A DNA stretch of 54,652 bases, from contig JACRLC010000054.1 in assembly GCA_016235425.1 (NCBI GenBank), forward strand, positions 1 through 54,652, given 5' to 3'. This document shows, piece by piece, positions 4,886 through 23,977 of this stretch; position 1 is the stretch's first letter, and the number at the start of each line of letters is the position of its first letter. The stretch is from Chloroflexota bacterium. GTDB taxonomy: Bacteria > Chloroflexota > Anaerolineae > Anaerolineales > Villigracilaceae. Both the position numbers and the translations under genes were made by a program. The notes under the pieces are model-generated. The model worked only from the letters and a program-made list of their open reading frames with translations, did not search any database and was not told the DNA's origin.

Positions 4886-4927
4886 GTGAATGATCTCCTG
4901 GTCAATTTTGCAAAGTTTGTTCACAAC

Positions 4928-4974
4928 CCATGCGTGGATAGCGGCGCGCATCGGGGACGGTATCGCAGAAACCA
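4928..4974. repeat. Dispersed repeat, copy 1
   Basis: About 45 bp (ATGCGTGGATAGCGGC through GGTATCGCAGAAACC) resembling 5606-5651 with several substitutions. The two copies bracket the two-gene module at 5008-5486. Confidence 0.45.
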
Positions 4975-4992: not shown

Positions 4993-4998
4993 TATAAT
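4993..4998 (+). promoter_or_regulatory. -10 box (TATAAT) of the two-gene module
   Basis: TATAAT lies 9 nt before the ATG at 5008, leaving at most a few leader nucleotides; there is no Shine-Dalgarno. Confidence 0.5.
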
Positions 4999-5007
4999 AA
5001 AAGCACT

Positions 5008-5253
5008 ATGTGGCCTGAAGAAGTCGAGGTCATCGGCGAAATCACAGAGGTCGAAATCATTGCTGTCGGTCACTCTATTCGTGAATTGGATAGGTTGCAG
5101 AGAAAGCATGGCAAAGGACGCTGGCGTAAACTCAAAGGATTGGCAGCCGTCCGTCTTCCAGATGATACGACTTGCTTTGCTGAAATTCATTGGTACGAAG
5201 CGCATGGTATTGGAAAACGTGACATCAAAGTAAAACGAATTCTCGGAAAATAA
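5008..5253 (+). CDS. Uncharacterised basic protein, module gene A (copy 1)
   Basis: An 81-residue protein with the order: acidic N-terminus, EVEIIAVGHSIREL, a helix DRLQRKHGKG, then basic RWRKLKGLAAVRLPDD, then AEIHWYEAHGIGKRDIKVKR. It is clearly paralogous to the product at 16482-16715 (same motifs EIIA.G.SIR.L, RKLKG, HWYEA). I know of no assigned function; it has a small, compact, basic alpha/beta look. It is followed after 2 nt by gene B, and the same A-B order recurs at 16257-16715, so the two probably act together. A toxin-antitoxin role is possible but not shown. Confidence 0.8.
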   Translation: MWPEEVEVIGEITEVEIIAVGHSIRELDRLQRKHGKGRWRKLKGLAAVRLPDDTTCFAEIHWYEAHGIGKRDIKVKRILGK

Positions 5254-5255
5254 TT

Positions 5256-5486
5256 ATGACTACTAAAACATCCCCTCAATTTGTCGTGTGCCTCAAAAAC
5301 AATGGCTACGAAGCCTCACTCGAACCGCGCAAGATTTATCAGGTATTGCATGATAAGGAAGCGGAGAGCCACAAAATGATTCGCGTTGTTGACGAATCGG
5401 GCGAAGACTATCTCTTCCCTGTCAGTTTGTTCTCGCCAATCTCATTGCCTCAAACTTTGATAAAAGAATTGGCTCTTTCAGCATAA
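5256..5486 (+). CDS. Uncharacterised small protein, module gene B (copy 1)
   Basis: A 76-residue protein: VVCLKNNGYEASLEPRKIYQ, then MIRVVDESGEDYLFPVSLF, then a helix LPQTLIKELALSA. It is paralogous to the product at 16257-16478 (shared YEASL, RK.Y.V, RV.DESGEDYL). The fold looks like a small all-beta barrel followed by a helix, by inference from alternating strands. The start ATG is 2 nt after the stop of gene A, consistent with translational coupling. Function unknown. Confidence 0.8.
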   Translation: MTTKTSPQFVVCLKNNGYEASLEPRKIYQVLHDKEAESHKMIRVVDESGEDYLFPVSLFSPISLPQTLIKELALSA

Positions 5487-5565: not shown

Positions 5566-5661
5566 AGACCTGACAGGTTTTGTCGTAACGCAAGTCAATC
5601 ACATTCCACGCGTGGGCAGCGGCACGCCTCAAGGGCGGTATCGCGAAAACCTGTCAGGTCT
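5566..5661. repeat. Inverted repeat with 16-bp perfect arms
   Basis: AGACCTGACAGGTTTT at 5566-5581 and AAAACCTGTCAGGTCT at 5646-5661 are exact reverse complements, 64 bp apart. The spacer contains the second copy of the repeat found at 4928-4974. It looks like a small palindromic intergenic element next to the restriction-modification genes. Confidence 0.65.
5606..5651. repeat. Dispersed repeat, copy 2
   Basis: CCACGCGTGGGCAGCGGC through GGTATCGCGAAAACC. It matches 4928-4974 imperfectly and lies inside the larger inverted repeat. Confidence 0.45.
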
Positions 5662-5696: not shown

Positions 5697-6587
5697 TTAC
5701 AATTTGTCCACCCAGTTTAGGTCACGGCCAATGAGTAGTTCAGTCATTGTAGTATTATGAGTATTTGTCATTGCAACTAGGCGCGTTTCAAATCTATATT
5801 TCAACGCCAAGGCTCGAACTTCATCGGCATCGTCGTAAGTCATCAGGAAATCGCCTTTTGCTTTTGACATTAATTCAAATAATTTCGCGTGGTCAACCTG
5901 ATGATATTTGTAAAGTCGAGCCCCCGCTTTTTTCTTTGAAGCAGTATAAGGAGGGTCAACAAAATAGACAACATCGGAGACACCCGAATATTTCTTTATT
6001 GTCTGGAATCCGTCGCCTTTAATAAACTTCAAATTTTCCCTGACTTTTGAAATGTCAAGTATCCGCCTCTTGAGTGTTGCGGGGTACCATCTGGATAGTA
6101 TTCCTTTTCCTTTTTCACCATTCTTCAAAATACCTGCGCCGTCAGCAAGGATGCCGCCGTGACTCACACGGTTTTGAATAATTGTCTTGAACGCCAGATC
6201 TCTGGACGAATTTGATTGAGATGAAATCAATAATCTTGCTGATTCGGGTGTCAATTTGAAATTAATGATTTTGTTGGCCAGCCACTCTGCACCATCATCT
6301 GTATTGATAATTGTCTGCCAGACAGCCGCGACCTGCTCATCTTTTTCCACCAAAATCACAAAATCAGCAAGACTTTCAAATGCAACCGTCAAGCCCGTGA
6401 TTGCCCCACCAGCAAAAGGCTCTATAAATTTTTTGGGTTTTGACGGCAGACTTCTCAGCCATTGCCTGGCTCTTGGCACAAGCCAGGTTTTGCCTCCAGG
6501 ATAGCGGAAAGGACTACGCTGAGGAACACTCGCGACATTTACTACTTTCGGAGGAACTTCAACTTCCCAAAAACCAAGTTGGTTCAT
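5697..6587 (-). CDS. D12-class N6-adenine DNA methyltransferase (of the NotI-family system)
   Basis: A 296-residue Dam-like (D12 class, alpha-type) methyltransferase. FRYPGGKTWLVPR at about 27-39 and FIEPFAGGAITGL at 54-66 form the AdoMet-binding motif; DPPY at 211-214 is the catalytic motif IV; FLMTYDDADEVR is a typical C-terminal segment. It methylates adenine in the recognition site and protects host DNA. It starts 5 nt after the stop of the NotI-family endonuclease, so the two form an R-M operon. The strong cognate pairing is inferred from adjacency. Confidence 0.9.
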   Translation of the reverse strand: MNQLGFWEVEVPPKVVNVASVPQRSPFRYPGGKTWLVPRARQWLRSLPSKPKKFIEPFAGGAITGLTVAFESLADFVILVEKDEQVAAVWQTIINTDDGAEWLANKIINFKLTPESARLLISSQSNSSRDLAFKTIIQNRVSHGGILADGAGILKNGEKGKGILSRWYPATLKRRILDISKVRENLKFIKGDGFQTIKKYSGVSDVVYFVDPPYTASKKKAGARLYKYHQVDHAKLFELMSKAKGDFLMTYDDADEVRALALKYRFETRLVAMTNTHNTTMTELLIGRDLNWVDKL

Positions 6588-6592
6588 ATCAT

Positions 6593-7483
6593 TTACTTGC
6601 TGAAAGAATCAGGCAAAGGCTCAACGTCCGGGGAAATTCCAGAAGATGTTGGTGTTCCCATTGTTTTACCTTTTGTAATTCTGACTTTCAAGTACTCCAC
6701 AAAGTCATTGACATCACCTACCTCTGGCGTTGTCATCGTCGCCAATGCACTTTCAAATTGGGTATATCGTATTCCTTTTCTACGCAAGGAATAACGCTCT
6801 CCCTTTTTCTGAAAACTATAAACTATCCACGCGATGTCGGCTGATTCTTTGTCAACTTCTTCCAATACGGGCAATTGCGCGAAAAAGTTTTCGTCAACAA
6901 CCACAGCCATCTTCCTGCCCCATTTATGTAGAATTCCGCCTTTATAAATCAATTGCGGAGCAAGTCTCTTGCGTGAAGAAGATAGATAATCCGGGCTTGG
7001 ATAATTCTTTGCAGGCCATTCCATGCCCTGATTTTTCTTTGGGTTTTCCATATACTTCTCAAAGACATTTCTCACGTTACCCGTGATGTAAACCGCCTGA
7101 ACTTCAACCGCGCCAAAATCCAGAACTTCGCCTTTTTTATCAACAGCCGCAATGACGATGTCAATGTTTCCAGCCGATTTACCATGCAAATCTTTAAGTC
7201 TTGCCTCGGTCAGAGCGACATAATTGCTTCCCGGAAAAAAGAAATCCGCCGCGTCAGAAACGATTTGGAAATCTTCCCTAAAACGAACAGGGCAAGTAGC
7301 CACAATTTTGCTTCCATCGAAAATCGTGCATACACCGATTGAGTCTGTTGCGCTACTCTTTGTACAGTTAATCCCCGATGAGTTGTGAAATGGACACAAA
7401 CGACCACGCCGATGATTGTTCGCGTCCTGGGTCATATTGTCAACAGGGTAGCCGAAGACTTCTGCGAGTGGGTTTTTAGGCAT
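6593..7483 (-). CDS. NotI-family type II restriction endonuclease
   Basis: About 296 residues. The N-terminus has four cysteines (C30, C40, C52, C64) in the pattern LCPF..NC.K.....GVC..C that matches the iron-binding fold of NotI. The PD-(D/E)xK-like core follows: D108 in NIDIVI, then E127-x-Q129 in GAVEVQAVY, as in NotI (Asp, then Glu-x-Gln). It should cut double-stranded DNA at a GC-rich site, but the site cannot be read from sequence. The start is the ATG at 7483 because GGAGAG lies just upstream; the longer in-frame start lacks it. It is cotranscribed with the methyltransferase that follows. Confidence 0.85.
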   Translation of the reverse strand: MPKNPLAEVFGYPVDNMTQDANNHRRGRLCPFHNSSGINCTKSSATDSIGVCTIFDGSKIVATCPVRFREDFQIVSDAADFFFPGSNYVALTEARLKDLHGKSAGNIDIVIAAVDKKGEVLDFGAVEVQAVYITGNVRNVFEKYMENPKKNQGMEWPAKNYPSPDYLSSSRKRLAPQLIYKGGILHKWGRKMAVVVDENFFAQLPVLEEVDKESADIAWIVYSFQKKGERYSLRRKGIRYTQFESALATMTTPEVGDVNDFVEYLKVRITKGKTMGTPTSSGISPDVEPLPDSFSK

Positions 7484-7524
7484 GGCGCTCTCCAAAATGA
7501 TTCTTAAACACAGTATAACATCCC

Positions 7525-9543
7525 CTATCCCTGCATCCTCTCCCACTCCGCCAGCTTCTCATCCATCTCCTTCTGCACGCGCTCGTATTCCTTTCCCAAT
7601 ACTGCCACCTCATTCGGCTTCACAAGCGGACTCCCCAGTTGCGCGCCCAAATTGGACAAGGTCGCTTCAAGTTCTGCGATGGTGTTCTCCAACTCCTGCA
7701 ACTGTGCCATCTTTCTTCGCTCTGCCTTCACGGAGTCCGACGACTCCTGTCGTCGGGGTTTCGTGCGAGTTTCCGAAGTCGGGAGACTTCGGAGTCCTTC
7801 TGTTGCCAACCGCTCCTCTTCTTTCCTTCTTTCATCTTTCATCTGTGAATATGTCCCATTGAACGCGATCATCTGATTTTCATCAGGATTGATTTCCCAG
7901 ATTTGCGTCGCGAGTGCATCCACGAGATAGCGGTCGTGGGTGATGAGCAGGATGGTGCCTCTGTAATCGTCCAGCACAGCTTCGAGCACTTCCTGTGACG
8001 GGATGTCGAGATGGTTGGTTGGCTCGTCGAGCAGGAGCAGGTTCGTATCCTGCAAGGCCAGTTTGGACAATGCCAAACGTCCGCGCTCGCCGCCGGAGAG
8101 CATATCCACTTTTTTGTAGACGTCATCGCCGCTGAACAGATACTTGCCGAGATAATCGCGAATCTGACCAGGAAGCCAGTTCGGCATGACCGAGTCGATT
8201 TCTTCGAGGACGGTCTTGTTCGGGTTGAGACCTTCGTGCGCCTGCGCGAAGTATCCGATGTGCAGGGACGACCCAAGAATTACTTCGCCAGCCAGCGGTT
8301 CGATTTGACCCAATATCGTCTTCAAAAATGTCGTCTTGCCCGCGCCGTTGGGACCGATCAACGCGCCGCAGTCTTTTCGACGCAGTTCAATGTCAGGCGC
8401 GGAGAACAGGAATTTCCCAGGGTCGCCTGCGACAGCATGGTAACCAATCTTCAAATCCTTTGTGCGAATGACCAGATCGCCCGAACGTTTTTCGGAGCCG
8501 AGTCGCAAATGCAGGCGCGGCAACGTCCGCACGGGAGAGCGCAGACCACGCACGCGCTTTTCGGCTTCCTCCACGCTGAACGAACTGGTCGTCGTTTCCA
8601 CGTCCAGTTGCGACCAGTTGGTATTGAGCGCGGCTTCCATGCCGACCTGTTCGATGGCCTGCACCATGCGCGACAGCCGTTTCAACTTGCCTTTGGCCTG
8701 TAACGTGTTCTGTCCCGAAATATTTTTCTTGATGTACTCGACTTCCTTGAGAAGTTTTTCCTTTTCGCTCTCGAAAATTTCCTGCCTGCGTTCGGCGCGC
8801 TCCTGCCGCTGATGAAGGTATGCGGAGTAGTTGCCGTGATACAACTCGAACGCGCCGGGGTGCATTTCGAGAATTACGTTGCAGGCCTTGTCCAGAAAAT
8901 AACGGTCGTGCGAAACGATCACCGCCGCGCCGCCCCATTGCGAGAGATACCCTTCGAGCCACTCGACCGCGCGAATGTCCAGGTGGTTGGTCGGCTCATC
9001 GAGCAGGAGCAGGTCCGGGTCCGAGAGAAGGAGGCGGGCTAAAAAGGCGCGCGTCCTCTGTCCGCCGGAGAGATGATCGAGCGAGAGTCCGTAATCAGCC
9101 GCGTCGAATCCCAGCCCGGTCAACACCTGCTTGATGCGCGTCACGTACGTGTATCCGCCGCGCCGCTCGAAGTCCTCCTGCAGCTTTCCGTAACGCTCCA
9201 TCACATCGTGCTGCGTCGCCATCAGACTTTCGAGCCTGTGCAGTTCATCCTGTTGTTTGATTAAATCATCGAAGACGGAATGACACGCATCCCAGAGAGT
9301 TCCCTCCATTTTGAAATCTGCCTCCTGCGACAGATACCCGATTCGGACTCCCCGCGAGCGGCTGACCGTTCCCGAAGAGGCTTCATCCTCCCCGACGAGG
9401 ATTCGGAGGAGCGTGGTTTTGCCGACGCCGTTCGGACCGACGAGCGCCATGCGCGCGCCCTTCGCAACGGAGAAGGTGAGGCTGGTAAAGAGATCGGTCG
9501 TGCCGAAGGATTTGGTGAGGGAGGAAACGGAGATGAGGGACAT
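7525..9543 (-). CDS. ABC-F family ATPase
   Basis: About 672 residues with two ABC ATPase domains in one chain and no membrane segment: Walker A GPNGVGKTTL and GPNGAGKTTF, signatures LSGGQRTRAF and LSGGERGRLA, Walker B LLLLDEPTNHLD twice. A linker with coiled-coil character lies between them, and there is a C-terminal coiled coil. ABC-F proteins act on the ribosome (translation factors or antibiotic protection; Uup/EttA/YdiF types). The linker before the C-terminal coiled coil contains two 20-bp palindromes in frame (see 7737-7792). The start at 9543 fits MSLISVSSLTKSFG; the longer upstream ORF adds an unsupported extension. Confidence 0.9.
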   Translation of the reverse strand: MSLISVSSLTKSFGTTDLFTSLTFSVAKGARMALVGPNGVGKTTLLRILVGEDEASSGTVSRSRGVRIGYLSQEADFKMEGTLWDACHSVFDDLIKQQDELHRLESLMATQHDVMERYGKLQEDFERRGGYTYVTRIKQVLTGLGFDAADYGLSLDHLSGGQRTRAFLARLLLSDPDLLLLDEPTNHLDIRAVEWLEGYLSQWGGAAVIVSHDRYFLDKACNVILEMHPGAFELYHGNYSAYLHQRQERAERRQEIFESEKEKLLKEVEYIKKNISGQNTLQAKGKLKRLSRMVQAIEQVGMEAALNTNWSQLDVETTTSSFSVEEAEKRVRGLRSPVRTLPRLHLRLGSEKRSGDLVIRTKDLKIGYHAVAGDPGKFLFSAPDIELRRKDCGALIGPNGAGKTTFLKTILGQIEPLAGEVILGSSLHIGYFAQAHEGLNPNKTVLEEIDSVMPNWLPGQIRDYLGKYLFSGDDVYKKVDMLSGGERGRLALSKLALQDTNLLLLDEPTNHLDIPSQEVLEAVLDDYRGTILLITHDRYLVDALATQIWEINPDENQMIAFNGTYSQMKDERRKEEERLATEGLRSLPTSETRTKPRRQESSDSVKAERRKMAQLQELENTIAELEATLSNLGAQLGSPLVKPNEVAVLGKEYERVQKEMDEKLAEWERMQG
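7737..7756. repeat. In-frame palindrome 1 within the ABC-F gene
   Basis: CCGACGAC-TCCT-GTCGTCGG, 8-bp perfect stem, 4-nt loop, inside the coding region for the C-terminal linker (protein segment PRRQESSDSV). Confidence 0.7.
7773..7792. repeat. In-frame palindrome 2 within the ABC-F gene
   Basis: CCGAAGTC-GGGA-GACTTCGG, 8-bp perfect stem, 4-nt loop. It lies 16 bp from palindrome 1 and shares its layout, in the segment coding LRSLPTSETR. Confidence 0.7.
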
Positions 9544-9611: not shown

Positions 9612-9944
9612 ATGCCAAAAATCCCAGATGAGTTTGCCAAAAAAATCAAGATTGAAAGAATTTACCCTGACGAGTTGAAGTCATATTTTGTCTCAAATGT
9701 CGTTGTTCAGCATCAGCCCGATAACTTTATCCTTTCTTTCTTTGAAGTCTGGCCTCCAGCAGTTCTTGGAGAGACCGACGAAGAAAAAGAAGAAGCCTTT
9801 AATGCCATTGACCATGTGGAAGCAAAGTGTGTAGCCCGCTTAGTGGTCACTCCTTCAACTATGAAGCAGTTTTTAGATACTATCGCAGAGAATTGGAAAA
9901 ACTATGAGCGTTTAATCCAGATAGAGTCTGGAGATAAGAAATAA
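9612..9944 (+). CDS. DUF3467 family protein
   Basis: A 110-residue protein with the DUF3467 pattern: SNVVVQHQPDNFILSFFEVWPP, then ARLVVTPSTMKQFLDTIAENWKNYE. The family is widespread and small; its biochemical role is not established. It is the first gene of a tight three-gene operon, ending 2 nt before the antitoxin-like gene and followed by mazF. DUF3467 proteins are not a usual part of MazEF modules, so this linkage is worth noting. Confidence 0.75.
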   Translation: MPKIPDEFAKKIKIERIYPDELKSYFVSNVVVQHQPDNFILSFFEVWPPAVLGETDEEKEEAFNAIDHVEAKCVARLVVTPSTMKQFLDTIAENWKNYERLIQIESGDKK

Positions 9945-9946
9945 CT

Positions 9947-10219
9947 ATGCTTGACACCTTTACTCTGACATATAATAGCAATTCAAATAGCCAAAAAACT
10001 GACTTGCTCCCAACATCAGCAATTCAGCATTTTGCCGTTTCAGTATTTGACCAATACAATATTTTGGATTGGTCACAATTGCTAGGGGTTTCAGTTTTGC
10101 AATTCAAAATGCGGGAGTTGTTAAAATCAGAGGCGTATCAAACCATGCTCGCTTCGGAAAGTATCCTTAGCCGGGATTGGGATTCACCTGAAGAGGATGA
10201 GGCATGGGCAAATTTGTAA
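9947..10219 (+). CDS. Putative antitoxin of the MazF toxin
   Basis: A 90-residue acidic protein with no family I recognise. The N-terminal half, with LPTSAIQHFAVSVFDQYNIL, is helical, and the C-terminus SRDWDSPEEDEAWANL is acidic and probably disordered, as in antitoxin tails that wrap their toxin. The assignment rests mainly on position: its last 16 bp overlap the start of a clear MazF/PemK gene. There is no obvious AbrB or RHH DNA-binding motif. Confidence 0.6.
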   Translation: MLDTFTLTYNSNSNSQKTDLLPTSAIQHFAVSVFDQYNILDWSQLLGVSVLQFKMRELLKSEAYQTMLASESILSRDWDSPEEDEAWANL

Positions 10220-10536
10220 AGGGGGATGTGGTTGTCATACCGTTTCCATTCTCAGACTTAAGCGCTTCAAAAAAGCGTCCCGCATTTGTGGTAACTCAAT
10301 TAACAGGAGATGATGTCATTCTCTGCATGATTACCACACCTGCAAAGGCTGATAATTATTCTATTCCGGTTATGAAGGCTGATTTCATTGCTGGGGGGAT
10401 AGACCACGACTCGCATGTTCGGCCAAATAGGTTATTTACAGCAGACTCAAAATTAGTAACGCGCTCTGCAGGAAAATTATCAAGGAAAAAGATTGAGCAA
10501 GTTATATCAAAAATCATAGAGATTGTGCAGTCGTAA
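10204..10536 (+). CDS. MazF/PemK family endoribonuclease toxin
   Basis: A 110-residue member of the MazF/PemK fold: GDVVVIPFPFSDLSASKKRP at the N-terminus (PFPFSD and KKRP are signature motifs), VILCMITTPAK in the middle and VRPNRLFTADSKLVTRSAGKLS near the end. Such toxins cut single-stranded RNA at short sequence motifs. The start overlaps the upstream antitoxin-like gene by 16 bp, so translation is likely coupled. A strong terminator follows at once. Confidence 0.9.
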   Translation: MGKFVKGDVVVIPFPFSDLSASKKRPAFVVTQLTGDDVILCMITTPAKADNYSIPVMKADFIAGGIDHDSHVRPNRLFTADSKLVTRSAGKLSRKKIEQVISKIIEIVQS

Positions 10537-16174: not shown

Positions 16175-16256
16175 GATGTCCTCCGGGTTCATTATATAAC
16201 AAGCGAGCGGACGAAATGTCCGCTCAAATGATAGACAGTATGAAGGGCTTGGAATT

Positions 16257-16478
16257 TTACGCCGCAATTAATGCTTTTTCCACTTCGGCGGGCAGGTGGA
16301 TGAAAACAAAGTGACTGATGTGATAAAGGTAATCTTCGCCGCTTTCGTCAATTACGCGGATTAAATCATCCTTCTCCGCCTGTGGGTCGGGGATGACTTC
16401 GTAAACTTTGCGCGTGATTAAAGACGCTTCGTAGTCTGTATTGTCGATACAAAGGACAAAATGTTTTTTTGTGCTCAT
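16257..16478 (-). CDS. Uncharacterised small protein, module gene B (copy 2)
   Basis: A 73-residue paralogue of the product at 5256-5486: FVLCIDNTDYEASLITRKVY, LIRVIDESGEDYLYHISHF, LPAEVEKALIAA. The conserved core YEASL/RK.Y.V/RV.DESGEDYL is intact, so this gene looks functional. It starts 3 nt after the natural end of gene A copy 2. Function unknown. Confidence 0.75.
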   Translation of the reverse strand: MSTKKHFVLCIDNTDYEASLITRKVYEVIPDPQAEKDDLIRVIDESGEDYLYHISHFVFIHLPAEVEKALIAA

Positions 16479-16481
16479 AAT

Positions 16482-16715
16482 TTAATCCAAATACCGTTTG
16501 ATTTTGATATCTTTTCGGCCAATTCAGCCTGCTTCATACCAGTGAAGTTCAACATGTCGGATGTTGCCGTTAGATAATTTGACGTGGGCAAAGCCCTTTA
16601 ACTTCCTCCAGTGTCCGTGCCCGTGCATTTTTTGCAAATATGCCAGGTCGCGTATACTGGAGCCAATTGCGATAATTTCTACTCCCACAATTTCGTCAAC
16701 GATTTCGAATTTCAC
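16482..16715 (-). pseudogene. Module gene A (copy 2) with in-frame TGA
   Basis: It starts with GTG at 16715: EIVDEIVGVEIIAIGSSIRD, then GHWRKLKGFAHVKLSNG, then HVELHWYEAG. Here an in-frame TGA occurs (16524-16526). Without a frameshift the reading continues IGRKDIKIKRYLD and ends at TAA 16482-16484, 3 nt before gene B. The continued part matches the C-terminus of copy 1 (GIGKRDIKVKRILGK), so the ancestral protein had 77 residues and a nonsense change cut it to 63. It may be a recent pseudogene, a functional short form, or a readthrough site; a sequencing error cannot be excluded. Confidence 0.65.
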
Positions 16716-21600: not shown

Positions 21601-22488
21601 TTAACTAATCGCCTTGAAATTTAATTTTGGTGCTTTAATTGCTTGCGGGTTATCTGATTTGGGAACTATGAGGTTATTACAAAAGAATAATATCTCATTG
21701 CCCTTGTATTTGTCTTGTGCAGTGTAATGTAGTTTATATGCCAAGGATTTATATTTCTTGTAAAGCAAGCGAATTTCAGGCACATCATCATATGAAATAA
21801 TCCAACGATGATTCACATGTGAAATTAAATTGGCAATAGATTTGTGGTCGTTAGGCTCATAATAATTTACATATAACATTTGTTGACCTTTTATGTAATA
21901 AGGTGGGTCAAGGTAAACAAGAGAGTTTGTTCCTAATTTTGGCAATTCGGTTTGAATGAATGCAAATGCATCTTTGTTGAACAAAGAGATCTTCTGCTTA
22001 TATTCAGATATCTTTCTTATTCGTTGCAATAATTCGGGCTTATTAAACCTACAATCTAATTTCCAATCTCCATTTTGTTCTTTTCCTCCAATTACTCCGC
22101 CACTAATAATGCCAGACCTGTTTGTTCGATTTAAGAAGAAAGTCGAAAAACCCAATTCAACCAAAGATGCACGCTTCTTGTTTTCTTGGATTTTCCGCTG
22201 TTTATACCATTCTTCGATAGTAACAGACGTTTCTTGAATTAGTTTGGTTAATTTTTCGGTTTTGTACAACACTGAATACCAAAACGCATAAACTGCTCTA
22301 TCTAAATCATTTATGTAAATGTGATTTACATAGCCATCAATTAATAGTGCTAGACCTATGCTTGCGCCACCTGCGTAAGGCTCAACATATTGCCCCCTAA
22401 TAAGACCATTCTCTTGGATGATAGTCTTCATGAAGTTGACAAGCCTTCGCTTGCCGCCAGGATATCGAAGTGGGGAGAGAAAAGGCAT
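21601..22488 (-). CDS. D12-class N6-adenine DNA methyltransferase (second)
   Basis: About 295 residues. PLRYPGGKRRLVNFM at 6-20 and VEPYAGGASIGLALL at 35-49 bind AdoMet; DPPY at 194-197 is the catalytic motif; WIISYDDVPEIRLLYKKY is typical near the C-terminus. It belongs to the same class as the gene at 5697-6587 but is clearly divergent and AT-richer, suggesting separate acquisition. The start at 22488 follows the stop of the ParB-domain gene by 11 nt with GAGAG upstream. There is no recognisable endonuclease next to it, so it may act with the ParB-domain protein. Confidence 0.88.
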   Translation of the reverse strand: MPFLSPLRYPGGKRRLVNFMKTIIQENGLIRGQYVEPYAGGASIGLALLIDGYVNHIYINDLDRAVYAFWYSVLYKTEKLTKLIQETSVTIEEWYKQRKIQENKKRASLVELGFSTFFLNRTNRSGIISGGVIGGKEQNGDWKLDCRFNKPELLQRIRKISEYKQKISLFNKDAFAFIQTELPKLGTNSLVYLDPPYYIKGQQMLYVNYYEPNDHKSIANLISHVNHRWIISYDDVPEIRLLYKKYKSLAYKLHYTAQDKYKGNEILFFCNNLIVPKSDNPQAIKAPKLNFKAIS

Positions 22489-22499
22489 TCTTTGCACTC

Positions 22500-23861
22500 T
22501 CAAACTGGCCACAGATTTGAAAGGAATGGTGCGATATCGTCCCATGCCGTTTTTAATTCGGATGGTATTGGAGAGAAATATTGATTATGGACAAATCCAT
22601 GCAAAGTTTTTATTGATGCCGCCAGCAAAGTTTGTCCACCTGCCGCTTTTCTAATGGGGGCTAATTGTCTTGAAGTCATTGTTTGTTTGTTTTCGAGTTC
22701 GTTAGCTACCGCTGTCAATTTTTGTGCAAGCCCGGAGTTTTCTATTTTTGGTTCGCCCCACTTCATTGTCTCCTCAAGAAAATGGTCTAAACTTAATTCT
22801 AAAAATACACGAAACATCACAGCGGCCGCGTTTGGAAATTCATCTACATTTAGTTTTTTCAATTCCACAAAGATTTTATTAATTCGAGTTTGCGTTACAT
22901 CTGCCAAAAAGTCCTTTGGAATAAGAGTAGTTCGAGGCTTTTCTTCCTTAGAAGCCTTCTTTTTAGTGCCAGCAGACAATGGAGAAGTTACAGGTGCATC
23001 TTTTGTGGAACTATTCGTTTTACTATTTTCAGCAAGATGAGGGTCAAACAACTTATCTATATACTCAATTCGTTGGTCTACTCTTTTTATATCTGATACA
23101 GTTCTGTATTCAGTACCAAGATCTTCAATTATCTGTGCAAGACTTTTGATGGTTTTATCGTCAAACGAATCTATGACGCCTTTATTAATCTGAAGGCCAA
23201 TCTTTTTTCGCACGTAGGGAGTATTAATTAAGCGCGTCAGACTTGTAATTGGGAACTTGCCGTTTTCGATTTTTTCACGGGTTTTCTGTGACAAAGTTTT
23301 ATGGTCTTTTGTCAAATCAAGAATCTGGAGAGCAGCAGGCGCGCTCCTTTCGCCAATACCTTTTCTTTCGTCATACCTGGCTGCTACCTGACCGTTCCAT
23401 TCAACCAATCCTGCACCCTGGCTTTCGCCACGATGAATGAGTTGTATCCACGGGTCGGCCTGCTCTCGGTCATTGAAAACTACACACTCAAGTTCACTGA
23501 TTGGCCCACTTTTATACTTTGAAGATAGCTCCCTGATTTTTTGTACTACCGAACCGTTAATAATGCCATCAATAAGTTCTGGGCGTTCAAGTAGCCTTAA
23601 AGCAGTTAGGCGACGATTTCCGTCAAGAACGTAATACATTTTTTCGTTTTCAGCGACTGGAATTACAATTGGCAAACTCGCTGGGTTAGTTCCATTATTT
23701 GCCAAATGTTGCGCCAAAGCAAAAACCTTGCTTCCCTGCGTCTTTATCATCAATCGAATCGCATCATCCTGGCTTGATTGCATTTCAGGCAACCTAGGAT
23801 TTTGTGTGTCAACTAACAATTGACTAATGGGTATTCTTGTTTGAAGAAATGTTGTGTTCAA
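22500..23861 (-). CDS. ParB/Srx-like nuclease-domain protein with helical C-terminus
   Basis: About 453 residues. The N-terminal ParB-like domain has TRIPISQLLVDTQNPRL and YYVLDGNRRLTALRLL (DGNRR at 80-84, the nucleotide-binding-type motif). A central region is Lys/Ser-rich (about residues 275-305). The C-terminal third is helical, with SIKTLHGFVHNQYF and KTAWDDIAPFLSNLW, as in phage-defence proteins that carry a HEPN-like tail; that last match is only an impression. TTG at 23861 is the start: AGGAGG lies 6 nt before it, and the ATG at 23918 has none. It is paired with the adenine methyltransferase downstream. Confidence 0.75.
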   Translation of the reverse strand: MNTTFLQTRIPISQLLVDTQNPRLPEMQSSQDDAIRLMIKTQGSKVFALAQHLANNGTNPASLPIVIPVAENEKMYYVLDGNRRLTALRLLERPELIDGIINGSVVQKIRELSSKYKSGPISELECVVFNDREQADPWIQLIHRGESQGAGLVEWNGQVAARYDERKGIGERSAPAALQILDLTKDHKTLSQKTREKIENGKFPITSLTRLINTPYVRKKIGLQINKGVIDSFDDKTIKSLAQIIEDLGTEYRTVSDIKRVDQRIEYIDKLFDPHLAENSKTNSSTKDAPVTSPLSAGTKKKASKEEKPRTTLIPKDFLADVTQTRINKIFVELKKLNVDEFPNAAAVMFRVFLELSLDHFLEETMKWGEPKIENSGLAQKLTAVANELENKQTMTSRQLAPIRKAAGGQTLLAASIKTLHGFVHNQYFSPIPSELKTAWDDIAPFLSNLWPV

Positions 23862-23977
23862 GGTTTTCCTCCTATTGTTGAGGGTGCCTCTTATTTTAAC
23901 ACTTAATGCGTTCTCCATTTCCTGAGTATCCTCGCCACCTCCCCTCTTTCCACCTTCTTCCTCAATTACTCAGACAA

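What the first reader, a model, noticed from the sequence alone, without database searches (positions are those of the whole stretch)
5008..5486. Uncharacterised two-gene module present twice (also 16257-16715)
Both copies have the same order (gene A basic, RWRKLKG/HWYEA; gene B YEASL/DESGEDYL) with 2- to 3-bp spacing, and both have a -10 box just before the first start. Two paralogous copies 11 kb apart suggest a mobile or duplicated functional unit, for example toxin-antitoxin or RNA-binding pair.
Basis: partly seen in the sequence, partly recalled or inferred. Interest (0 to 1): 0.68.

Follow-up and report, generated by a model that had tools for sequence, protein, structure and literature searches.

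The report
Toxin-antitoxin pair resembling phage capsid toxins
Two small bacterial genes that nearly always travel together look like a poison and its antidote; the poison resembles the tail end of capsid proteins of bacterial viruses, and one of the two copies here has a broken poison gene but an intact antidote.

Summary
The two-gene module is real and occurs twice, with corrections. The copies lie on opposite strands. They belong to two separate lineages (53% and 49% amino-acid identity for A and B), so they are not a recent duplication. Copy 2 gene A carries an in-frame TGA, so its 3-nt spacing holds only if that stop is ignored.

A and B match no Pfam or NCBIfam family above its cut-off and no PADLOC model. 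In overlapping samples of 301 order and 301 phylum genomes, 46 of 49 A genes have B adjacent; the rest are a contig end, a fragment, and a divergent A followed by a B-like ORF. B often persists with A broken or absent: about 20 loci (hand-judged), against none the other way.

Distant relatives of A form the C-terminal domain of phage head proteins (MuF1, MuF2, portal), followed by a small B relative, as in MuF polymorphic toxins and their immunity genes. A models as a confident beta-alpha-beta-beta-beta domain with conserved E59 and H61; B as an SH3-like barrel.

Best reading: a solo toxin (A, possibly an RNase) and antitoxin (B), an uncatalogued family shared with capsid-borne toxins. Toxicity, catalysis and A-B binding are inferred, not shown. 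'Duplicated unit' fails; 'toxin-antitoxin' is supported.

The parts
5008..5253 (+). Gene A, copy 1: 81-aa basic protein, predicted toxin; conserved WRKLKG core and EIHWYEAHGIG; confident beta-alpha-beta-beta-beta model
   Evidence: dN/dS 0.07-0.11 in the 4 of 7 comparisons where dS could be computed
5256..5486 (+). Gene B, copy 1: 76-aa acidic protein, predicted antitoxin/immunity protein, SH3-like barrel, DESGEDYLFP motif
   Evidence: dN/dS 0.02-0.09 in the 6 of 7 comparisons where dS could be computed
4993..4998 (+). TATAAT, 15 nt upstream of the A start (near-leaderless transcript inferred; no -35 match)
   Evidence: a perfect TATAAT lies within 35 nt upstream of A in 13 of 33 members; 13 of 29 with 0.25 expected, from which four members without it were left out
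16482..16715 (-). Gene A, copy 2: GTG start, in-frame TGA at 16524-16526, final TAA 16482-16484; predicted disabled toxin
16257..16478 (-). Gene B, copy 2: 73 aa, intact, predicted antitoxin kept after loss of its toxin
   Evidence: dN 0.054, dS 2.7 against the B of L027
16722..16727 (-). TAAACT, 12 nt upstream of the copy 2 A start; this hexamer lies just upstream of A in 7 of the 8 members of its clade
   Evidence: sequences read by eye
16204..16226 (-). Terminator-like hairpin downstream of copy 2 B (pattern match only)
   Evidence: 1 found, 0.9 expected in shuffles
4921..4973 (+). Left copy of a 53-nt direct repeat (77%) that flanks copy 1
5599..5651 (+). Right copy of that direct repeat, inside an element with 16-nt perfect inverted ends (5566-5581/5646-5661); three further matches (two of 96 nt, one of 28 nt) lie elsewhere in the genome

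Best explanation
A-B is a solo toxin-antitoxin (toxin-immunity) pair. Shown here by comparison: A and B are co-inherited as one unit; A is homologous to the C-terminal domain of phage head proteins; B is homologous to the small ORF that follows those domains; and A decays while B is kept under purifying selection. Inferred: A is a toxin, most likely a metal-independent RNase using conserved E59 and H61 with the near-invariant K74/K76 (about even odds for RNase); B binds A through its SH3-like barrel and blocks it; the pair is read from its own near-leaderless promoter with B translated just behind A. Copy 1 would be an active pair. In copy 2 the toxin is disabled by a TGA that removes its last 14 residues (the whole last strand, with K74 and K76 in copy 1 numbering), while the antitoxin is kept, perhaps as protection against related toxins.
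For: Co-occurrence: A in 29 and B in 35 of the same 301 order genomes, 27 with both (Fisher p 4e-29); 15 and 19 of 301 phylum genomes, 14 with both (p 4e-19). The samples share genomes: 39 distinct genomes have A, 48 have B, 36 both. Adjacent also on a gammaproteobacterial plasmid. Phage link: in IMG/VR contigs, A-like C-termini of MuF1 (PF04233), MuF2 (PF06152), HK97 portal (PF04860) and phrog_2494 minor-head proteins; 9 of the 9 longer carriers I scanned matched a head or portal family, and in 16 of the 16 A loci a small B-like ORF follows within -17 to +6 nt. Profile-profile E 3.6e-22 for A and 3.2e-16 for B. The best structural match of A among viral proteins is a minor capsid protein (E 6e-4, TM 0.69). 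Decay: by hand about 20 loci with B intact and A broken or gone (8 broken A, 12 no A by profile), none seen with intact A and broken B. B genes without a working A keep low dN against dS (0.056 against 1.3).
Against: No toxicity, RNase or binding data exist. The fold of A has no clear PDB match (best Z 4.1; no Foldseek E under 0.001), so catalysis rests on conserved residues alone. B shows no DNA-binding domain in its model, unlike many type II antitoxins. The phage tail domain has not itself been shown to be toxic. No full promoter match at either copy. The decay counts are judged by hand and come from related genomes. L008 has an A fragment without B.
Confidence: 0.8

Rival explanations
1. 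The roles are reversed: B, with an SH3-like barrel as in MazF/CcdB toxins (recalled), is the toxin and A the antitoxin.
For: B models as an SH3-like barrel.
Against: A is the part fused to phage head proteins. A is what decays, while B survives alone under purifying selection. No MazF-type Pfam match for B.
Confidence: 0.06
2. The pair is not toxic: A and B form a housekeeping or RNA-binding complex.
For: Purifying selection on both genes; A is basic. A B relative sits next to an Rsr/Ro60 gene in two large viral contigs.
Against: Patchy presence (A in 29, B in 35 of 301 order genomes); the eight window neighbours tested occur at no other locus held then; frequent loss of A with B retained; MuF toxin-like architecture.
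Confidence: 0.12
3. The module is a mobile cassette duplicated within this genome.
For: Two copies 11 kb apart; imperfect direct repeats flank 7 of 28 modules against 17 of 269 control placements (p 0.0035; 6 of 28, p 0.013, if a low-complexity case is dropped).
Against: The copies lie in two separate clades, each with ultrafast bootstrap 100, on opposite strands, with almost no shared DNA. The flanking repeats differ from locus to locus and are only 71-90% alike, unlike target-site duplications.
Confidence: 0.05
4. Copy 2 gene A is functional because the TGA is recoded or is a sequencing error.
For: The frame stays open and well conserved after the TGA. In G477 and G552 the TGA stands where relatives have Trp, which taken alone would fit TGA read as Trp.
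Against: In copy 2 the TGA stands at a Gly position. The nearest relative L027 and G173 have TAG, and A is broken by a frameshift in G272 and G310 and by deletion in G106, changes that recoding does not cure.
Confidence: 0.1

Closest known systems
MuF polymorphic toxins of temperate phages (PMC5576092; Bxa and Apk2 in PMC11699363)
   Same: A is homologous to the C-terminal domain of MuF1 and MuF2 proteins, and a small ORF homologous to B follows
   Different: The window A has no MuF domain and its neighbours are chromosomal genes; this tail domain is matched by no Pfam or NCBIfam model; it also occurs on an HK97 portal protein
Type II toxin-antitoxin systems
   Same: Two small adjacent genes, basic then acidic products, patchy presence and one-sided decay
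   Different: Putative toxin gene first; B models as an SH3 barrel with no DNA-binding domain seen; no match to a catalogued TA family
Ntox24 and RES toxin domains, reported both in polymorphic toxins and in type II TA systems (PMC3482391, passages)
   Same: Precedent for one toxin domain used in both solo pairs and delivered toxins
   Different: A1 matches no Pfam model at E up to 10; relation to these domains was not tested further

Membership tests
Type II toxin-antitoxin system | Two small adjacent co-oriented genes kept together | tested here: met
   46 of 49 A genes adjacent to B; the other three are a contig end, a fragment, and one with a divergent B-like ORF 2 nt on
Type II toxin-antitoxin system | Toxin harms the cell and the antitoxin protein neutralises it by binding | not testable with these tools
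   needs expression and pull-down
Type II toxin-antitoxin system | Antitoxin may be kept without toxin, but not toxin without antitoxin | tested here: met
   about 20 loci against 0, hand-classified, related genomes; L008 A fragment without B lies outside the tally
Type II toxin-antitoxin system | Antitoxin with DNA-binding, autoregulatory domain (typical, not universal) | tested here: inconclusive
   B model shows an SH3-like barrel plus a C-terminal helix; DNA binding not assayed
Type II toxin-antitoxin system | Homology to a catalogued TA family | tested here: not met
   no Pfam or NCBIfam family above cut-off, no PADLOC model
MuF polymorphic toxin | N-terminal MuF (capsid) domain | tested here: not met
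   window A is 81 aa, the tail domain alone, with no Pfam match
MuF polymorphic toxin | C-terminal toxin domain followed by a small immunity ORF | tested here: met
   homologous tail domain and following ORF in phage contigs; toxicity of that domain untested
BECR-fold (Barnase-EndoU-ColicinE5/D-RelE) RNases | BECR fold | tested here: inconclusive
   no significant PDB match; best Z 4.1 to cystatin-like scaffolds
MazF/PemK toxins (for B) | PF02452 match | tested here: not met
   no hit for B1 or B2, while another window ORF at 10204-10536 does match

The most novel reading that the evidence does not exclude
A is an undescribed RNase toxin domain with two lives: as the payload tail of phage capsid and portal proteins, and as a chromosomal toxin-antitoxin pair. 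Solo or toxin-less B genes, such as copy 2 B, persist because they protect the cell against capsid-delivered toxins of infecting or competing phages, so B would be an anti-phage or anti-toxin immunity gene.
Probability: 0.25. Interest if true: 0.75.

Novelty: new member of a known kind. Interest (0 to 1): 0.57.

Why it matters
It assigns a testable function to an unclassified protein pair found across Chloroflexota, in two metagenome-assembled genomes labelled Acidobacteria and SAR324, and on a gammaproteobacterial plasmid. It also points to an uncatalogued C-terminal domain of MuF and portal proteins with its likely immunity gene, and links capsid-borne toxins to chromosomal toxin-antitoxin pairs. 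The many toxin-less B genes make 'immunity kept after toxin loss' open to direct experiment.

Tried and rejected
Family searches of A and B: nothing above a curated cut-off in Pfam or NCBIfam, nothing at E up to 1 in PADLOC, no usable PHROGs or PDB-sequence hit. Chance-level hits not followed: Fn3-like (E 0.24) and TIGR00367 (E 0.025) for truncated A2, ribosomal L8 (E 0.0059) for the A profile, Mago nashi (0.58) for the B profile. Copy 2 B had a weak hit to phrog_34144 (E 0.031), a family that later matched phage B proteins strongly. The PDB fold search of A gave nothing clear; BECR, colicin E3 and RNase A folds are neither shown nor excluded. The L026 A and B proteins found nothing in the annotated phage collection at E 0.1, and A and B queries found one plasmid only. 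Single-sequence searches of viral contigs found nothing; profile searches did.

Counts mended on the way. G416 first looked like A without B; reading the locus showed a divergent B-like ORF 2 nt downstream. My first decay tally (10 broken-A pairs plus 13 solo B genes, 23 against 0) was too generous: in G258 and G038:C49 the B start is lost and in G552 B looks degraded. I therefore report about 20 (8 plus 12); G173:C130 (GTG start) and G477 are judgement calls, and two of the 12 come from one genome (G154). In G085 an A that I counted as intact has no clear start and a W-to-G change. Eight of the 67 B places were set aside as fragments before the count of 59 full-length B. I did not check the B start codon by eye in each of the 36 pairs with an intact A; there I rely on full-length profile matches without stops and. 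L008 (30-residue A core, no B, transposase-like sequence beside it by eye) is outside the tally. For the TATAAT count, one search used 29 of the 33 members; the four left out have no perfect TATAAT, and 10 of the 13 members with it belong to the copy 1 clade. With at least 5 of 6 matches, 18 of 33 have a site against 7.8 expected in shuffles. The flanking-repeat enrichment is modest, and the control placements partly overlap modules.

Literature searches: only; I claim no absence from print beyond them. Papers: PMC5576092 (abstract and outline, passages, section 8), PMC3482391 (passages), PMC11699363 (passages); all others seen as search listings only.

Full report
What is there. Copy 1 is a plus-strand pair: A at 5008-5253 (81 aa) and B at 5256-5486 (76 aa), 2 nt apart. 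Copy 2 is on the minus strand: A at 16715-16482 with a GTG start and an in-frame TGA at 16526-16524, and B at 16478-16257 (73 aa, intact). A1 and A2 are 53% identical and B1 and B2 49% over the alignment; these are the only A genes found in the 5.0-Mb assembly. By the titles of its closest relatives the genome is of the Anaerolineae/Chloroflexota type; its name was not given.

Not a duplication. In a joint A+B tree of 32 pairs, copy 1 falls in a clade of 14 and copy 2 in a clade of 8, each with ultrafast bootstrap 100 and each containing genes from other genomes. Copy 2 is 82% (A) and 90% (B) identical to L027 but only about half identical to copy 1. The surrounding DNA is unrelated, and the eight window neighbour proteins that I tested (including the glycosyltransferase-like, methyltransferase, NotI, ProC, RuvA and RuvC genes) match no other locus held at that time. 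Two separate acquisitions fit better than a local duplication; this is an inference.

A and B are one unit. In the order sample A is in 29 and B in 35 of 301 genomes, 27 with both; in the phylum sample 15 and 19 of 301, 14 with both. The samples overlap; together 39 distinct genomes have A, 48 have B and 36 both. At gene level 46 of 49 A genes, intact or broken, have B adjacent. The three others are a contig end (G080), a short fragment (G209), and a divergent A (G416) followed 2 nt later by an ORF with the B pattern. Outside these samples, L008 has a 30-residue A core with no B; what follows looks by eye like a transposase. The pair also sits on a Thiodictyon plasmid and in metagenome-assembled genomes labelled Acidobacteria and SAR324, where A is split by a frame change. 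Both genes are under purifying selection (dN/dS 0.02-0.11 where dS could be computed). A perfect TATAAT lies within 35 nt upstream of A in 13 of 33 members; on 29 of these members 0.25 would be expected from the same loci. So the pair seems to carry its own promoter. The copy 2 clade has TAAACT there in 7 of 8 members. A full sigma-70 match is reported at neither window copy.

One-sided decay. B is often intact where A is broken or gone. Copy 2 (TGA), L027 (TAG), G477 (TGA), G173 (TAG and truncation), G272 and G310 (frame changes), G276 (truncation) and G106 (core deleted, both ends left) have a broken A beside a B with a usable start. Thirteen full-length B genes have no A by profile. Three of them keep a short A remnant just upstream: a C-terminal piece in G311 and in G047, an N-terminal piece in G432. 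In one of the thirteen (G038:C49) the B start is lost. This gives about 20 loci with B intact and A broken or gone, and I saw no intact A beside a broken B. The classification is by hand and the genomes are related, so the binomial figure (for 23 cases) overstates the evidence. A is the better conserved of the two (mean column identity 68% against 43%), so missed detection should bias the other way. B genes without a working A still evolve under constraint (dN 0.056 against dS 1.3 for L124 and L139; dS could be computed in 6 of 8 comparisons).

Phage link. Profile searches of IMG/VR (E-values there relate to candidate stretches only) found A-like domains at the C-terminal end of phage head proteins: MuF1 PF04233 (L083, L093, L098, L101, L104), MuF2 PF06152 (L105, L111), an HK97 portal protein PF04860 (L094) and a phrog_2494 minor-head protein (L088). 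All nine longer carriers that I scanned gave such a match; near-identical carriers were not scanned. Of the 16 A loci, four (L079-L082) are not fused to a recognised carrier and resemble the solo form, two (L090, L091) are 91-aa ORFs without a carrier domain, and L092 is cut by the contig end. In all 16 a small B-like ORF follows within -17 to +6 nt; twelve of these were aligned with B, the other four show the same sequences as aligned ones. Of the 14 B loci examined, ten have an A-like domain upstream; for L095, L096, L097 and L110 none was listed. Profile-profile comparison of solo and phage forms gives E 3.6e-22 for A and 3.2e-16 for B. This is the architecture described for MuF toxins and their immunity genes (PMC5576092), of which Bxa and Apk2 are reported to be antibacterial with neutralising neighbours (PMC11699363, passages).

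Structure. The A model has mean pLDDT 92.4 and strand-helix-three-strand topology. W39, G44, E59 and H61 are invariant and K74 and K76 nearly so across solo and phage forms. PDB searches gave no clear match; the best viral match is a minor capsid protein. B has mean pLDDT 84.9, and the top PDB rows are nearly all SH3 domains (best Z 7.7, rmsd 3.5, 69 aligned; one search also lists a few other small barrels). Z under 8 shows fold similarity at most, not function.

Mechanism. I propose that A is a toxin and B its antitoxin. The step from 'toxin-like by architecture and decay' to 'RNase' is an inference from conserved Glu, His and Lys (about even odds). Direct neutralisation by binding is inferred from the analogy with MuF immunity proteins. 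Copy 2 is best read as a pair whose toxin has been inactivated while the antitoxin is retained.

Mobility. Seven of 28 modules have imperfect direct repeats (71-90%) in their 600-nt flanks, against 17 of 269 control placements. In L011 the repeat looks like the start of a priA-type gene (recognised by eye, not searched). This may reflect imported DNA joining at diverged homologous sequence; it is suggestive only.

Novelty. The kind (toxin-antitoxin or toxin-immunity pair) is known, and so is the sharing of toxin domains between polymorphic toxins and TA systems (PMC3482391, passages). The family itself has no Pfam or NCBIfam match, and phrog_34144, which fits the phage B proteins, has no assigned function.

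Noticed in passing
window 5697-7546 (-): A D12-class adenine methyltransferase next to a NotI-type restriction endonuclease (PF12183, E 9e-56): a complete-looking restriction-modification pair directly beside copy 1.
   Followed up: partly
window 9612-10536 (+): DUF3467 protein, a 90-aa ORF without a match, and a MazF/PemK-like toxin (PF02452): a likely second toxin-antitoxin system.
   Followed up: partly
window 21601-23918 (-): A second D12 methyltransferase and an adjacent 472-aa ORF with a ParB-like look (by eye, not searched) in a low-GC stretch.
   Followed up: no
L095/L096 5983-6156: A small B relative without A sits just after an Rsr/Ro60-type gene in contigs of 195 and 253 kb.
   Followed up: no
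L109 5439-5918 and L112 2859-3335: The A-like domain also ends short (158-159 aa) proteins with a DUF7211 segment.
   Followed up: no
window 5566-5661: Element with perfect 16-nt inverted ends; two 96-nt matches on contig C31 and a 28-nt match on C9 elsewhere in the genome.
   Followed up: partly
L153 638-1233 (genome G416): A divergent A (86 aa) with an extended B-like ORF (110 aa) 2 nt downstream, suggesting a wider superfamily than the profiles reach.
   Followed up: no
L008 3380-3800: A 30-residue A core breaks off into sequence that looks by eye like a transposase, with no B nearby.
   Followed up: partly
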